Origin: an uncultured Acidobacteriia bacterium
GTDB lineage: Bacteria; Acidobacteriota; Terriglobia; Bryobacterales; Bryobacteraceae
Direction of reading: 5' to 3'
DNA length: 64,000 nucleotides
Assembly (NCBI GenBank): GCA_903923395.1
Contig: CAIXXM010000031.1
Location: 1-64,000 of the forward strand
Part shown: positions 388-37,719 of the stretch, piece after piece
Layout: each line of letters opens with the position of its first letter
How positions within the stretch are numbered: position 1 is the stretch's first letter
The notes under the pieces: generated by a model
The model's input: only the letters and a program-made list of their open reading frames with translations
The model's database searches: none
What the model was told of the DNA's origin: nothing
Translations under genes and position numbers: made by a program

Positions 388-861
388 GTGATCATGGACC
401 CCGTGCCGCAACAGGGCGCGAAGTGGAAAAACGCCCTTGGCGCCGACGCTCTTTCCGCCTATGCCGCTTCCGGCGGCGGTATCGAAGCACCGTATTCCGC
501 GCTCACCAAGTACGCGGAGGAGTTCTGGGACCGTTGCAATTCCGCCGGTGGCGCGGTCGTGCCGCTCGTCATGTCGGGCTGGGACCGCCGCCCCAGGGTA
601 GTCCATCCCATGCCCTGGGAGACTTACCAGAAGCCGGGAGTGGGGCTCGACCGTTACTACCAAACGGCAACTCCTGCCGCGATTGCGGAACACCTGCAAC
701 ATGCCGTTTCCTGGACCCTCGCCAACAAGAAGGCAGCCCCGGCGCAGGCCATTCTGATCTATGCATGGAACGAGAATGATGAGGGCGGATGGCTGACACC
801 CACTCTGAACGAAGGCAGCGCCCGGTTGGATGCAATCCAAAAAGTGCTGCGCCGCCCATAG
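388..861 (+). CDS. C-terminal fragment of a glycoside-hydrolase-like protein (barrel type), 5' end missing
   Basis: The frame gives about 157 residues that read like the end of a secreted (beta/alpha)8-barrel carbohydrate enzyme. It contains VVPLVMSGWDRRP, a tail YAWNENDEGGWLTPT and a closing helix RLDAIQKVLR. The W-N-E-x-D-E-G-G-W pattern resembles the last barrel strand of GH71/GH99-like proteins, where an acidic residue lies next to the active site. No signal peptide or start region is present; the GTG at 388 is only the first possible start after the stop at 370-372. The upstream part seems to have been lost at a junction near 373-388. The family assignment is inferred from motif style only, and the fragment is unlikely to be functional alone. 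Confidence 0.5.
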   Translation: MIMDPVPQQGAKWKNALGADALSAYAASGGGIEAPYSALTKYAEEFWDRCNSAGGAVVPLVMSGWDRRPRVVHPMPWETYQKPGVGLDRYYQTATPAAIAEHLQHAVSWTLANKKAAPAQAILIYAWNENDEGGWLTPTLNEGSARLDAIQKVLRRP

Positions 862-1336
862 CGTTCCGTTTTGATTCACAAATTTGGTGGATTATTCAGG
901 CCGGAAATGGGACACCCTGGAATACGCTCAGATTCCTGGGTCCATCTGCATCTATCGCTGGATGTTCGTGCGCCATTCTGGCGCGCGTGCCCAGGCAAAG
1001 ACAACTTCCCGAAACAGGCGGTGTATTCGTCCATTTCCGTGGCTGGCACGGCCAAAGCCCAAGACGCGGCTAGCTAGAGCAGTCGCGTCTGCCCAGTCCC
1101 CGCGGAAACGCGGTTGGTAGCCGCGTGTCCAACATCACAACTGATTGTGACTGCTTATTCCAGACATGGAATGATCACCATTCTGTGTGAATCACTCCAC
1201 TGGCAGCTTGTTGAAAAATCCGACATACCGCTTGATGGCGCGCGCGGGAGGGGCATCTCGCCACATTTCTCAACAAGCTCATCCAGCAGCCCGTGGATTC
1301 AGCCAGCTTCATGTTCGGCACCAGGAAGATGCAGTC
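862..1336. other. Intergenic, apparently degraded stretch
   Basis: About 475 bases without a convincing coding frame. The overlapping short frames in this interval share no recognisable motif. The only structured element I see is the 75-bp inverted repeat at 1205-1279, listed separately. Confidence 0.5.
1205..1279. repeat. 75-bp MITE-like element with 15-bp terminal inverted repeats
   Basis: AGCTTGTTGAAAAAT at 1205-1219 is matched in inverted orientation by ATTTCTCAACAAGCT at 1265-1279, with 14 of 15 positions complementary. The ends resemble the TTGTTGAAAAA-type termini of several insertion-sequence families. The internal 45 bases are too short for a transposase. It could be a miniature element or a solo IS scar; a transcription terminator is less likely because the loop is long and no T-run follows. 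Confidence 0.55.
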
Positions 1337-1900
1337 CTGATACCAACACTCCAATTGGCACTGTCGCTCCTCCTGCTGACCTTCTACGCCTCTGCTGCGC
1401 CTATCGTTTTCACTCTGGGCGCGGACCCCGTGCAAGATTATCTCGGTGAAGATGTTGGTCCCTGCGAAGGCACGCTGACCAACACCAATCTCACCGGCTT
1501 TTTCTGTTTGGATCAGGATCTCGGGTCCACCTTTGGCACGCGTTATACGGGTACGGAGTCGGCCCCGTTGACGCAGCAGGAGCAGGAGGCGGCGTTTCTC
1601 GCTGCTTTGGATCTGGATCTGGGTCCGTCAGTGAATGGCCCGGTCTCGTATGCGATCTGGGAGGTCATGGGGACCATGGCCAGCAATGCGATTGTCCCCG
1701 CGGCAGCGAAATACATCGAGCTCGCCGAATACGCCTACGCACAGAAGTTGATTTGCAGTTCTGTTCTGGATCAGGCGATCATCTTCACGCCAAGCGATGT
1801 CACCGTGCAGCTGTTCATTACGGCGGTTCCGGATGACTGCGGGATTGGTGCGCCGCAAGAAGTAATTGTTTATCCGGCTCTTTCGGCCATTTGCTTCGAA
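1337..1900 (+). pseudogene. Remnant of a PEP-CTERM-type secreted protein gene
   Basis: The frame encodes a hydrophobic leader (LALSLLLLTFYASAAP) and then a stretch typical of small exported proteins found with PEP-CTERM systems: FFCLDQDLGS, PLTQQEQEAAFLAALD, GPVSYAIWEVMGTM and a central AEYAYAQKL helix. Similar proteins end in a PEP motif, a transmembrane helix and an arginine cluster, but here no PEP motif or anchor follows. After about residue EVIVYPAL (near 1880) the sequence loses all family character. No good ATG precedes the leader: an ATG at 1329 is out of frame by one base, and only CTG 1337 or distant GTG 1187 are in frame. I read it as a gene broken at both ends that happens to stay open in frame with the lyase gene downstream. 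Confidence 0.5.
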
Positions 1901-32268: not shown

Positions 32269-32865
32269 ATGGCTTCGATTGCAATCCCGGTTCTGGAGTG
32301 GAAGGAAGTTCCGTCGCAGCGGAAGAAGTTCACCCGTTCCGAGCTTGAGCGCTTGGAGGCGACCGGCCTATTTGACGGCCAGCGGCTGGAACTGCTCAAC
32401 GGAGATCTCATAGACAAGATGGGACATAACCCTCCCCACGCAGATGGCATCGTGGAATTGACCTATTTGCTGAATCAAATTTTCCGAAACGGGCGGGTCC
32501 GGGTGCAGGTTCCGATTGAGTTGCCTGAGCCGGATGCGAATTGGAATCAACCGCAGCCGGATTTGGCCGTGACTCCTGCCGGAAAGAGATATTCGAAGGG
32601 CCATCCGGCAGGCAGCGATCTTCTGCTGGCGGTGGAAGTCGCGGACAGCAGCGTCAGGCAGGATACCGGTCTGAAGCGGTTGCTGTATGCGCGGGCTGGC
32701 GTTCCGGAATACTGGGTGCTTGATATTCCGTCCCGCAAGTTGCTGGTTTACCGGAAACCGGAAGGTGGGGAGTTTCAGGAAGCAGTGGAACTTTCCGATG
32801 CGGAATTCGTGCCCTACAGTTCGAATGCCGGTGTGCCATCGCTGGTTCGTGATTTGTTGCCGTAG
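32269..32865 (+). CDS. Uma2-family (DUF820) putative restriction-endonuclease-like protein, copy 1
   Basis: 198 residues of the PD-(D/E)XK-like Uma2 family, which is strongly expanded in Cyanobacteria and some Acidobacteriota. Seen: FTRSELERLEATGLFDGQRLELLNGDLIDKMG, catalytic-type residues in QPDLAVTP and LLAVEVADSS, and the typical end KRLLYARAGVPEYWVLDIPSRKLLVYRKP. The Asp of PDLAV and the E-V of LAVEVAD fit a nuclease core. The biological target is unknown for the family. It is followed 41 bases later by a diverged paralogue. Confidence 0.85.
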   Translation: MASIAIPVLEWKEVPSQRKKFTRSELERLEATGLFDGQRLELLNGDLIDKMGHNPPHADGIVELTYLLNQIFRNGRVRVQVPIELPEPDANWNQPQPDLAVTPAGKRYSKGHPAGSDLLLAVEVADSSVRQDTGLKRLLYARAGVPEYWVLDIPSRKLLVYRKPEGGEFQEAVELSDAEFVPYSSNAGVPSLVRDLLP

Positions 32866-32906: not shown

Positions 32907-33524
32907 ATGGCTTCGATTGCAATCCCAGTCCCGGAGGGCAAGGACGCGTCCGCCGCGGCCGTCGAATTCAATGTTCGCAGGAAGCGCTTCACCCGTGCTG
33001 AAGTGGACCGCCTGGAAGCAATTGGGTTTTTCGCGGGTGCCCGGTTTGAATTGATCAACGGAGATCTGGTGGACAAAATGGGACAAATTCCCCCGCACGC
33101 CGGTGGCGTAAGTAAACTGGCCAAGCTTTTGGCGAGGATCTTTCCTTCGGTCACCATTCGGACGCAAGCCCCGGTGGAAGTCTCCGCCGCCGACGCTGCC
33201 ATCAGTCTTCCAGAGCCAGATGTTGTTGTCCCAAATCACCCCGGCGATTTTCTGGATCGCCATCCCAGGGCCGATGAAACTGTGCTGGTGGTGGAAGTCT
33301 CTGATTCCACTATCCGCCAGGACACGATCACGAAACGCGCCCTCTATGCGCGCGCCGGTGTCCCTGAATACTGGGTGCTCGACATCACCGGACGTAAGTT
33401 GCTGGTGTACCTCGATGCCGCAAACGGAGATTTTCAGAAATCCTTTGAGCTGGATGAGACCGGAACCGTGCCGCACAGCGCGGAAGCCGGTGTTCCAACA
33501 CGGATCGCATCCCTACTGCCTTAG
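32907..33524 (+). CDS. Uma2-family (DUF820) putative endonuclease-like protein, copy 2
   Basis: 205 residues, paralogous to the gene just upstream: the first residues (MASIAIPV) and the segments RFELINGDLVDKMG, PEPDVVVPN, VLVVEVSDSTIRQDT and KRALYARAGVPEYWVLDITGRKLLVYLD correspond. A short insertion near residue 15 (ASAAAVEFNVRRK) and a different central region distinguish the two. The putative metal ligands (Asp in PDVVV, Glu in VVEVSD) are present. The start codon, -10-like box and 34 upstream bases are copied from the first gene. Confidence 0.85.
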   Translation: MASIAIPVPEGKDASAAAVEFNVRRKRFTRAEVDRLEAIGFFAGARFELINGDLVDKMGQIPPHAGGVSKLAKLLARIFPSVTIRTQAPVEVSAADAAISLPEPDVVVPNHPGDFLDRHPRADETVLVVEVSDSTIRQDTITKRALYARAGVPEYWVLDITGRKLLVYLDAANGDFQKSFELDETGTVPHSAEAGVPTRIASLLP

Positions 33525-35190: not shown

Positions 35191-35215
35191 GCAATCGGGC
35201 AGTGATCCAAAAAAC

Positions 35216-35255
35216 AAACGCAGGCACCGGGGAAGGATCCGCTGCCTGCGTTTTT
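35216..35255. terminator. Intrinsic terminator, probably bidirectional
   Basis: AAACGCAGGCA (35216-35226) pairs perfectly with TGCCTGCGTTT (35243-35253), followed by a T-run on the plus strand and preceded by an A-run that serves the minus strand. It lies between the convergent ends of the GMC gene and the acidic-protein gene. Confidence 0.8.
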
Positions 35256-35277
35256 CGTTTGGGGAGTGAAAAATCCC

Positions 35278-35589
35278 TTATTCTTCGTCGTCGTCTTCTT
35301 CGAAGTCTTCGTCCAGATCTTCATCCAGATCGTCGTCGTCGTCCTCGTCGAGGTCATCATCATCCTCGTCCAGGTCGTCGTCTTCGAAGTCGTCGTCCTC
35401 ATCTTCGTCGAGGGCATCGTCCTCGTCTTCATCCTCTTCGTCTTCGTCGAGATCGTCGAGGTCGTCATCTTCTTCGTCGAGATCGTCTTCTGTGTCGTCC
35501 ATCTCGTCGAAGCCCATGTCATCGGGGTTGCGACGGGCCGGGCTCATTGCCCATTCCCGTTCGGTCGCGAAGTCATCCAAGTACGCCAT
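35278..35589 (-). CDS. Small, extremely acidic Asp/Glu-rich protein
   Basis: 103 residues; about two-thirds are Asp or Glu. The first ~27 residues are ordinary (AYLDDFATEREWAMSPARRNPDDMG), the rest is an almost unbroken D/E run interrupted by single Leu, Phe or Ala residues every 4-8 positions. A strong Shine-Dalgarno sequence (AGAGGAGAT) precedes the ATG, and a terminator lies downstream, so it is a genuine gene rather than low-complexity noise. It has no membrane segment, and such tails can act as nucleic-acid mimics, histone-like chaperones or metal sinks. I do not recognise a family. It is divergent from hslV. On the DNA level the tail is a GTC/TTC-type trinucleotide tract that could vary in length by slippage. 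Confidence 0.8.
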   Translation of the reverse strand: MAYLDDFATEREWAMSPARRNPDDMGFDEMDDTEDDLDEEDDDLDDLDEDEEDEDEDDALDEDEDDDFEDDDLDEDDDDLDEDDDDDLDEDLDEDFEEDDDEE

Positions 35590-35765
35590 ATCTCCTCTTG
35601 ATTCCGGGCCTGCGCCAGCCGCTGAAGCATAGCAGAATACCCGACTCCATCTGTGATTTCAAAGCCGGAAACTACTGCCTTCGATTGCAGTGTACACGGT
35701 CCGGGTGCGCAGGAAACACCGCGACGCGAAAAACTTGAAAGAAGAGCGGTTTCCGCGCTCTGCGA

Positions 35766-35771
35766 TACACT
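35766..35771 (+). promoter_or_regulatory. -10-like box TACACT upstream of hslV
   Basis: The string GATACACT occurs here, 13 bases before ATG 35785, and again before the aldolase (38689-38696), MBL (46275-46282) and 47321 (about 47258) genes, suggesting a shared promoter word. Confidence 0.45.
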
Positions 35772-35784
35772 AAAGATTCAATTC

Positions 35785-36324
35785 ATGAAGCAGCGAATTC
35801 GCTCCACAACGGTGCTCTGTGTGCGCCGGGATGGAAAAACGGTGATGGCGGCGGACGGCCAAGTCACTTTTGGTGGTGAAGTCCTGAAAGCAAACGCGAA
35901 GAAGCTGCGGCGCCTCTACAACGATAAAATCGTGGCGGGGTTCGCGGGGTCAACGGCGGACGCATTCTCTTTGTTCTCGCGGTTTGAGGCCAAACTGGAG
36001 CAGTTCAACGGCAATCTGCCCCGCTCCGTGGTGGAACTGGCGAAAGACTGGCGGACCGATAAGATCCTGCGGCATCTGGAAGCAATGCTGCTGGTGGCGG
36101 ATGCGAAAAACACGTTCATTCTCAGCGGCAACGGCGATGTGATTGAACCGGATGAGCAGGTCGCGTCGATCGGCTCCGGTGCTCCTTACGCGCTTTCTGC
36201 GGCGACGGCACTGCTTCGGCATACGAAGCTTGGGTCCAGGGCAATCACCGAAGAAGCCATGCGCATTGCCGCGGACACCTGTATCTACACGAATCAAAAC
36301 ATCATCTACGAGGAACTGGCTTAA
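35785..36324 (+). CDS. hslV: ATP-dependent protease proteolytic subunit HslV (ClpQ)
   Basis: 179 residues, normal length. The N-terminal threonine protease forms a dodecamer that is gated by HslU. After a short propeptide (MKQRIRS) the mature protein would begin at the catalytic Thr of [47 protein letters not shown] and LAKDWRTDK follow, and the end [25 protein letters not shown] carries the C-terminal contact with the ATPase. The start at 35785 removes an unrelated upstream extension. The stop is directly adjacent to the hslU start. Confidence 0.96.
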
Positions 36325-37719
36325 ATGGTGATCTATCTTCCGGTCAATTCGGTGGAGGAAACGCCGGTTCTTGATGAACTGACGCCGCGCGAGATTGTGC
36401 GCGAACTCGACAAGTACGTGATTGGGCAGCCGGAGGCGAAGCGGGCCGTCGCGATTGCCTTGCGGAACCGTCTGCGGCGGCAGAAGCTCCCGCCGGAAAT
36501 GGCCGATGACGTGATGCCGAAGAACATCCTCATGATCGGGCCCACCGGCGTCGGCAAGACGGAACTGGCACGGCGGCTGGCCAAACTGGCGAACTCCCCC
36601 TTCATGAAGGTGGAAGCGAGCAAGTTCACTGAGGTCGGGTATGTGGGGCGGGATGTGGAGTCGATGATCCGCGATCTGGTGGATATTGCCATCGACATGG
36701 TGCGGGAAGAAAAGCTCGACGAGATTGGCGACCGTGCCGAGAAAGCCGCTGAAGAGCGGATTCTCGATATCCTGCTGCCGCCGGCGCCGGAAGCAGTGGA
36801 TGGCGTGGAAGTTGTGGTGGAACCCGCAGCCAGGGAAACCGCGACAAAGACCAGAGAGAAATTGCGGGAGAGGCTGCGCGCGGGCAAGCTGGATGAACGC
36901 TCCATCGAACTGGAAGTGAAAGACCGGATGCCGGCGTTCGAAATCGCCAGCAACGTCAATCTGGAAGAGATGGGCATCAACATCAAAGACATGATGCCCG
37001 CCATGTTCGGTGCCCGCAGCAAGAAGCGGAAGATGACTGTGGCCGATGCCATGGATTATCTGGTGCAGGAAGAAGAGCAGAAGCTCATCGACATGGATCA
37101 GGTCACCCGCATTGCTCTTGACCGCGTGGAATCAAGCGGCATCATCTTCCTCGATGAAATCGACAAAATTGCCGGCCGGGAAGGCGGCGGCGGACCGGAT
37201 GTGAGTCGTGAGGGCGTCCAGCGCGACATTCTTCCCATCGTGGAAGGCACCACGGTGAATACCCGCTATGGCTTCGTGAAGACAGATCACATTCTCTTCA
37301 TTGCCGCCGGTGCGTTTCATGTCTCCAAGCCGAGCGATCTGATTCCGGAACTCCAGGGCCGGTTCCCGATTCGCGTCGAATTGAAGTCCCTCTCGGTGGA
37401 AGATTTTGTCCGGATTCTGAGTGAGCCGAAGAATGCGCTGGCCAAACAGTATGTGGCGCTGATGGAGACCGAAGGCATCAAGTTGAACCTGACGCCGGAT
37501 GCGCTTGAAGAAGTGGCGCGGTTCGCGGCCCAGGTCAATGAATCTTCTGAGAACATTGGGGCGCGGCGTCTGCACACCATCATGGAAAAGCTGCTCGAAG
37601 AGATTTCCTTCGAGGGGCCGGATCTCAAGAAGAAGAGCGTCAAGGTGGATGCCGCGTATGTGCGCAAGCAACTGGCCGCGATTGTGAAAGACCAGGATCT
37701 GAGCCGGTATATCCTCTGA
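36325..37719 (+). CDS. hslU: ATP-dependent protease ATPase subunit HslU (ClpY)
   Basis: 464 residues. AAA+ unfoldase that feeds proteins to HslV. Walker A GPTGVGKT (72-79), the pore loop GYVGRD (105-110), the I-domain (about 115-240, helical and charged), Walker [13 protein letters not shown], sensor region [24 protein letters not shown] and the C-terminal EISFEGPDL...[20 protein letters not shown], whose final residues insert into HslV. ATG 36325 follows the hslV stop with no gap. It overlaps the lipoprotein start downstream by one base. Confidence 0.97.

What the first reader, a model, noticed from the sequence alone, without database searches (positions are those of the whole stretch)
35278..35589. 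Extremely acidic Asp/Glu protein with its own Shine-Dalgarno sequence and terminator, divergent from hslVU
About two-thirds of the 103 residues are Asp or Glu, in a tail broken only by single Leu, Phe or Ala. The gene has a strong Shine-Dalgarno element and ends at an intrinsic terminator, so expression is likely. Possible roles are DNA mimicry, chaperoning of basic proteins or calcium binding. The GTC/TTC repeat DNA may be length-variable.
Basis: partly seen in the sequence, partly recalled or inferred. Interest (0 to 1): 0.55.

Follow-up and report, generated by a model that had tools for sequence, protein, structure and literature searches.

The report
Genus-wide hyperacidic protein beside hslV
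A small bacterial protein made mostly of aspartate and glutamate is a real gene: it is kept beside the protease gene hslV in every species examined of one uncultured Acidobacteria genus and was found nowhere else searched, and it probably works as a floppy, negatively charged binding partner for positively charged proteins.

Summary
Window 35278-35589 (-) encodes a 103-aa protein, 67% Asp/Glu, net charge -66. All 19 held genomes of the window's genus (uncultured MAGs, labelled Acidobacteriia to Bryobacteraceae) carry a homologue with the same N-terminal segment (consensus MAYLD...W..SPP[KR]RNPDD.[GS]FD[DE]L) and a 41-73 aa tail that is 81-91% Asp/Glu. In all 19 it is divergent from hslV, and a 16-bp element, ACCGTGTAMACTGCAA (one mismatch in one genome), lies 27-101 bp upstream; it resembles the hslV promoter core. 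Profile searches found no credible homologue in 188 other genomes of the family or 387 other genomes of the class, and 21 usable non-genus hslV upstream regions have no comparably acidic frame. There is no Pfam, NCBIfam, PHROGs, PADLOC or PDB-sequence hit, and AlphaFold gives no fold. Selection keeps the acidity: N-terminal pN/pS is about 0.18, and tail interruptions are mostly Leu/Phe, not one-step mutants of Asp/Glu codons. Best reading: a disordered polyanion with an N-terminal docking motif that shields basic proteins or competes nucleic acid off them. It resembles prothymosin alpha and the RNA polymerase delta tail in charge but belongs to neither family. Partner unknown; expression not testable here.

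The parts
35278..35589 (-). hyperacidic protein gene, 103 aa, stop codon included
   Evidence: ORF; homologues in 19 of 19 genus genomes
35491..35589 (-). conserved N-terminal segment (M..Y....W..SPxxRNPDDxxFDxM here), the part that defines the family
   Evidence: alignment A1, invariant M1 W13 S16 P17 N21 P22 D23 D24 F27; pN/pS 0.183 over 23 codons, 171 pairs
35281..35496 (-). Asp/Glu tail with single Leu/Phe spaced through it
   Evidence: 83% D/E over 72 residues; AlphaFold: no secondary structure there
35592..35599 (-). Shine-Dalgarno AAGAGGAG
   Evidence: sequence; GAGGA before the ATG in 14 of 19
35685..35700 (-). conserved 16-bp element ACCGTGTACACTGCAA, likely core promoter (-10-like TACACT at 35689-35694) of the acidic gene
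   Evidence: one exact match per genome in 18 of 19 genus genomes, one mismatch in the 19th
35766..35771 (+). TACACT, -10-like box of the divergent hslV promoter
   Evidence: TACACT within 45 bp of the hslV start in 17 of 19 genus genomes
35195..35275 (-). terminator-like hairpin between convergent genes, possibly bidirectional
   Evidence: -32.1 kcal/mol, z -4.39
35785..36324 (+). hslV (peptidase of HslUV), conserved divergent neighbour
   Evidence: PF00227 E 1.3e-23; adjacent and divergent in 19 of 19
36325..37719 (+). hslU (ATPase of HslUV)
   Evidence: AAA_2/AAA Pfam hits; hslU follows hslV in the 17 of 18 long loci that hold hslV

Best explanation
It is a lineage-specific, intrinsically disordered polyanionic protein, probably cytosolic, expressed from its own promoter back-to-back with hslV. 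The conserved N-terminal ~30 residues (aromatics Y3, W13, F27 and the SPP[KR]RNPDD core) form a short docking motif. The long Asp/Glu tail with scattered Leu/Phe acts as a soluble nucleic-acid-like polyelectrolyte that binds basic surfaces, keeping basic proteins soluble or displacing nucleic acid from a nucleic-acid-binding machine. Shown: gene, conservation, position, conserved upstream element, selection on acidity, predicted disorder. Inferred: promoter function, the docking role, basic partner(s), and any tie to HslUV proteolysis beyond shared position.
For: N-terminus under purifying selection. Acidity kept while the sequence turns over: all 19 tails are 81-91% D/E. Of 170 non-acidic tail residues, 116 are L/F/I, which need two base changes from GAN codons, and 42 are one-step products (V, A, G, N, K, Q, Y). 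Net charge -41 to -72, beyond prothymosin alpha (-44, PMC7661507) and the delta C-terminal region (-47, PMC7749165) in 18 of 19. AlphaFold: mean pLDDT 63.2, pTM 0.14, one 4-residue helix. In all 19 genus genomes, with a conserved upstream element. Downstream genes change and the chosen downstream frame is convergent in 15 of 18 loci.
Against: No partner identified. The obvious basic candidate, a histone-H1-like Lys/Ala/Pro-rich protein, was found in 16 of 19 genus genomes but not in G014, G017 or G018, which keep the acidic protein, and it also occurs in 22 genera without it (G017 was searched only); it is not an obligatory partner. No expression data. In 3 of 18 loci the chosen downstream frame is co-directional. 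A second promoter-like match (TTGAAA-17-TATTCT, 35662-35634; 0.3 expected from shuffles) lies nearer the ATG, so the real start may not be at the conserved element. Cation buffering would explain the tail equally well. The invariant N-terminal residues hint at one specific partner rather than general charge shielding.
Confidence: 0.42

Rival explanations
1. A dedicated HslUV partner: the N-terminal motif binds HslU or a substrate and the acidic tail modulates delivery or is itself degraded (adaptor, anti-adaptor or regulatory substrate).
For: Head-to-head with hslV in 19 of 19 genomes while the downstream neighbours change; the two promoter-like elements share TACACT (17 of 19 on the hslV side).
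Against: Of 61 relatives 60 have hslV but only 19 the acidic gene. A shared promoter region alone would keep the pair together. A literature search showed no such adaptor among the 8 papers listed of 80 (listing only).
Confidence: 0.17
2. A functional analogue of the RNA polymerase delta subunit tail or a DNA mimic: it displaces nucleic acid from RNA polymerase or blocks a specific DNA-binding protein.
For: Composition like the delta C-terminal region (net -47, disordered, compared there with a DNA-mimicking loop in the cleft; PMC7749165 passages); presence in every genus genome suggests a housekeeping role.
Against: No Pfam domain at E 0.01. Known DNA mimics such as Ocr and DMP19 are folded (recalled; abstracts listed), and this one is predicted unfolded.
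Confidence: 0.15
3. A divalent-cation or polyamine buffer, or a mineral-interacting protein, where only bulk negative charge matters.
For: An acid-rich disordered coral protein responds to Ca2+ and Mg2+ (AGARP, PMC12557392 passages); tail length and order of D/E vary between species.
Against: Does not explain the invariant N-terminal residues or the retained Leu/Phe; no signal peptide is evident by eye (no predictor was run).
Confidence: 0.14
4. The open frame is a low-complexity artefact or a non-coding antisense frame.
For: Low-complexity DNA; the opposite strand also has open frames; no expression data.
Against: Conserved start and N-terminus with pN/pS 0.183, upstream element and synteny in 19 of 19 genomes, SD in 14 of 19.
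Confidence: 0.03

Closest known systems
Prothymosin alpha (H1 chaperone)
   Same: About 100 residues, disordered, extreme negative charge (-44 there, PMC7661507 passages; 111 residues; -66 here)
   Different: No Pfam match for the window protein; conserved N-terminal motif and spaced Leu/Phe; bacterial, single genus
RNA polymerase delta subunit (RpoE) C-terminal region
   Same: Disordered acidic region, residues 91-173, net -47 (PMC7749165 passages)
   Different: Delta has a folded 90-residue N-terminal domain; none found here
LysW-type carrier proteins with acidic tails in other genera
   Same: Small proteins with long D/E tails: nine loci, 44-58% D/E in the eight whose frame is not over-long
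   Different: They have cysteine pairs and, in 8 of 9, a C-terminus at or near Asp-Trp (by eye); the one scanned scores TIGR01206 36.1 bits, under the 53.2 cut-off. The window protein has no cysteine
Bacterial and phage DNA-mimic proteins (Ocr, DMP19)
   Same: Acidic (recalled), compete with DNA (abstract starts)
   Different: Those are folded (recalled); this is predicted disordered

Membership tests
RNA polymerase delta subunit (RpoE) | folded N-terminal domain (HARE-HTH, name recalled) | tested here: not met
   no Pfam hit at E 0.01; AlphaFold shows no domain
RNA polymerase delta subunit (RpoE) | disordered acidic C-terminal region | tested here: met
   tail 83% D/E, no predicted structure
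Prothymosin alpha | sequence family membership | tested here: not met
   0 Pfam families at E 0.01, 0 NCBIfam at 0.1, 0 PDB sequences at 1; composition filters of HMMER may hide matches of such a tail
Prothymosin alpha | binds linker histone with high affinity | not testable with these tools
   needs a binding assay
LysW amino-group carrier | zinc-ribbon cysteines and C-terminal motif | tested here: not met
   no Cys in the sequence and no Trp near the C-terminus; no NCBIfam hit
Folded DNA-mimic proteins | stable fold presenting DNA-like charge pattern | tested here: inconclusive
   AlphaFold pLDDT 63.2, pTM 0.14; prediction only
HslUV adaptor or regulator | binds HslU or alters HslUV degradation | not testable with these tools
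   only synteny known
Phage or defence protein | match to phage or anti-phage families | tested here: not met
   PHROGs 0, PADLOC 0, viral contigs 0 relatives among 35 pattern matches

The most novel reading that the evidence does not exclude
A new protein family that arose in the ancestor of one Acidobacteria genus inside the hslV upstream region, next to the hslV promoter, and became universal there: a bacterial prothymosin-like charge chaperone whose N-terminal motif docks on one specific machine (HslUV, RNA polymerase or a nucleoid protein), with the tail acting as a tunable nucleic-acid competitor.
Probability: 0.2. Interest if true: 0.72.

Novelty: new variant of a known kind. Interest (0 to 1): 0.48.

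Why it matters
Extremely acidic disordered proteins are well studied in eukaryotes, for example as histone chaperones. Stand-alone bacterial ones with a conserved docking motif did not surface in the listings of my searches (9 of 9, 15 of 94 and 8 of 140 papers listed). A gene found in every genome of one genus and nowhere else searched, with an element that has one exact copy per genome in 18 of 19, is a clear case for studying how a new gene arises beside a housekeeping promoter and how composition rather than sequence is selected.

Tried and rejected
Homologues elsewhere: profile A1 over 200 family genomes gave only genus members at E below 0.001; the best outsider was E 0.0036. Ten weak loci (L021, L022, L057-L064) were examined and show no acidic frame; the other weak matches (E 0.06 to 1) were not examined for acidic frames. 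These searches score a capped number of candidates per genome (39, 19), so a missed relative is possible. Over 399 class genomes one outsider passed (G279, E 1.5e-4); it is a 15-residue match in a 43-codon frame overlapping a longer aminotransferase-like frame (by eye), rejected as chance. Viral contigs: none.

The 16-bp element as a regulon site: rejected. It has one exact match per genome in 18 of 19 genus genomes. With one mismatch allowed, 10 of 188 non-genus family genomes have one match each, against 16 control matches (pattern reversed) in 12 of the same 188; G010 has a second, one-mismatch site.

H1-like protein as a required partner: rejected, because its distribution does not follow the acidic protein. 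Rfam over the window at gathering scores: no family. Runs of 12 acidic codons: 25 of 61 relatives have one. Those examined outside the genus (12 loci and two regions fetched) are LysW-like in nine loci and unrelated frames in the rest; the three examined second sites inside the genus are the H1-like protein. The window genome itself has no such run.

Literature: searches were seen as listings with starts of abstracts only; passages were read in three papers. No paper on this protein was seen.

Full report
What is there. The minus strand of 35278-35589 encodes a 103-residue protein, 67% Asp/Glu, net charge -66. Its first 31 residues are mixed (MAYLDDFATEREWAMSPARRNPDDMGFDEMD); the last 72 are 83% Asp/Glu. 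AAGAGGAG sits directly before the ATG. Downstream, a strong hairpin (-32.1 kcal/mol, z -4.39) lies between this gene and a convergent GMC oxidoreductase gene, so it can serve either.

Is it a gene? Yes, as far as sequence can show. The N-terminal 36 residues find a match in 19 of 19 genomes of the genus (G000-G018) among 61 relatives searched; E is 6.8e-20 to 0.011, the weakest being G018, which reaches 3.4e-18 with the profile. In the 42 other genomes the best match was E 0.06; the two best outsiders (L021, L022) have no acidic frame, and the rest (E 0.7 to 0.9) were not examined for one. Alignment of the 19 gives nine invariant residues: M1 W13 S16 P17 N21 P22 D23 D24 F27. Over 23 codons of this segment the mean pN is 0.130 and mean pS 0.711, ratio 0.183, across 171 pairs; pS is near saturation and the pairs share members, so the figure is approximate. 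GAGGA stands before the ATG in 14 of 19.

The tail. Tails are 41-73 residues, 81-91% D/E, in the 19 sequences used (for G009 the complete copy L028 was used and the contig-cut copy L007 dropped). Order and length change between species while acidity stays. Of 170 non-acidic tail residues, 91 are Leu, 20 Phe, 5 Ile, 20 Val, 13 Ala, 6 Pro, 4 Thr, 3 Gly, 2 Asn, 2 Lys, 2 Ser, 1 Gln and 1 Tyr. Leu, Phe and Ile (116 of 170) cannot be reached from GAN codons by one base change, so I read them as kept by selection rather than as mutational noise. In seven pairs, changed tail codons were 102 synonymous, 74 Asp/Glu swaps, 29 between acidic and non-acidic and 11 other, with 48 gap positions (summed); the pairs overlap, and alignment of such tails can hide changes. 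The DNA is not a pure triplet repeat. Two contigs of one MAG (G009) carry tails that differ by seven codons (read), so the tail may be polymorphic within a population, or this is an assembly effect.

Position and promoter. In all 19 genomes the gene is divergent from hslV; the hslV start lies 61-197 bp beyond a conserved element. Of 18 long loci, 17 hold hslV with hslU after it; the 18th begins at a contig end and is the second G009 copy. Downstream, 18 of 19 loci examined had a frame of 120 or more codons in reach (the contig-cut L070 was left out); 15 of these 18 are convergent and 3 co-directional, and they fall into several unrelated kinds (PQQ-type, M20-type, L-aspartate-oxidase-like, GMC, RecQ-like; named by eye except GMC). 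The element ACCGTGTAMACTGCAA has exactly one exact match in 18 of 19 genus genomes and a one-mismatch form in the 19th, G015, always on the acidic-gene strand 27-101 bp before its ATG. Its TACACT or TAAACT followed by GCAA resembles the hslV side, where TACACT stands within 45 bp of the start in 17 of 19, so I read the two as back-to-back core promoters. In the 30 bp upstream of the element only the base next to it reaches 15 of 19 agreement, so no -35 box is conserved at a fixed place. The promoter scan reports instead one sigma-70-like match on this strand, TTGAAA-17-TATTCT at 35662-35634 (0.3 expected from shuffles); promoter function of the conserved element is inference.

Distribution. 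Profile A1: 12 of 12 sampled genus genomes and 0 of 188 others in the family at E 0.001; over 399 genomes of the class, the same 12 plus one chance match, leaving 387 non-genus genomes without a credible homologue. The searches cap the candidates scored per genome. The scan of named genomes found 18 loci in 17 MAGs, all labelled Acidobacteriia, Terriglobia, Bryobacterales or Bryobacteraceae. I examined the hslV upstream region in 23 loci outside the genus: one had only 108 bp, in one hslV was not found, and in the other 21 the most acidic 40-residue stop-free stretch was at most 38% D/E. The gene therefore looks genus-restricted, inserted or born in the hslV upstream region; loss elsewhere cannot be excluded.

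Structure and families. No hit in Pfam (E 0.01), NCBIfam (0.1), PHROGs (1), PADLOC (1) or PDB sequences (1). AlphaFold with 18 sequences: mean pLDDT 63.2, pTM 0.14, one four-residue helix. This agrees with intrinsic disorder but is a prediction.

Mechanism. I commit to a disordered polyanion with an N-terminal docking motif acting on basic or nucleic-acid-binding proteins (0.42). The nearest working models are prothymosin alpha, net -44, which binds histone H1 while staying disordered (PMC7661507, abstract start and passages), and the RNA polymerase delta subunit with its C-terminal region of net -47, which helps displace nucleic acid from RNA polymerase (PMC7749165, passages). An acid-rich coral protein shows that divalent-cation binding is a live alternative (PMC12557392, passages). 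I looked for a basic partner. The genus carries a Lys/Ala/Pro-rich H1-like protein with an acidic N-terminal segment. The G000 copy is 254 aa, net +31, and weakly matches HC2 in Pfam (26.4 bits, below the 40 cut-off). The protein is found in 16 of 19 genus genomes by the two searches together, not in G014, G017 and G018 (G017 searched only), and in 22 further genera of the family, which lack the acidic protein in the sample. It can be one client but not the reason for the gene.

What speaks against. There is no expression evidence. A hairpin-plus-T signal is missing in 6 of the 18 loci with 150 bp held downstream. The partner is unknown. The link with HslUV may be only positional.

Noticed in passing
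L217 (G000:C153:36800-39000), 716-1480 (-): Histone-H1-like Lys/Ala/Pro-rich protein with a conserved acidic N-terminus (consensus MFDDLKLA..DEDEMEDFR, alignment A3); in 16 of 19 genus genomes and 22 other genera of the family sample.
   Followed up: partly
L150-L157, L161: LysW-like proteins with cysteine pairs in other genera of the family (eight loci) and one genus outside it (L161) carry long Asp/Glu tails, 8 of 9 ending at or near Asp-Trp; one was scanned and scores below the LysW cut-off.
   Followed up: partly
window 35766-35771 (+) and 35689-35694 (-): hslV and acidic-gene upstream elements share TACACT, with no conserved -35 box upstream of the latter.
   Followed up: partly
L007 and L028 (G009): Two contig ends of one MAG differ by seven codons inside the acidic tail: in-population tail-length variation or an assembly effect.
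   Followed up: partly
window 32269-32865 and 32907-33524 (+): Two adjacent, similar ORFs of about 200 aa (both begin MASIAIPV), probably tandem paralogues of the Uma2 type (name recalled, not scanned).
   Followed up: no
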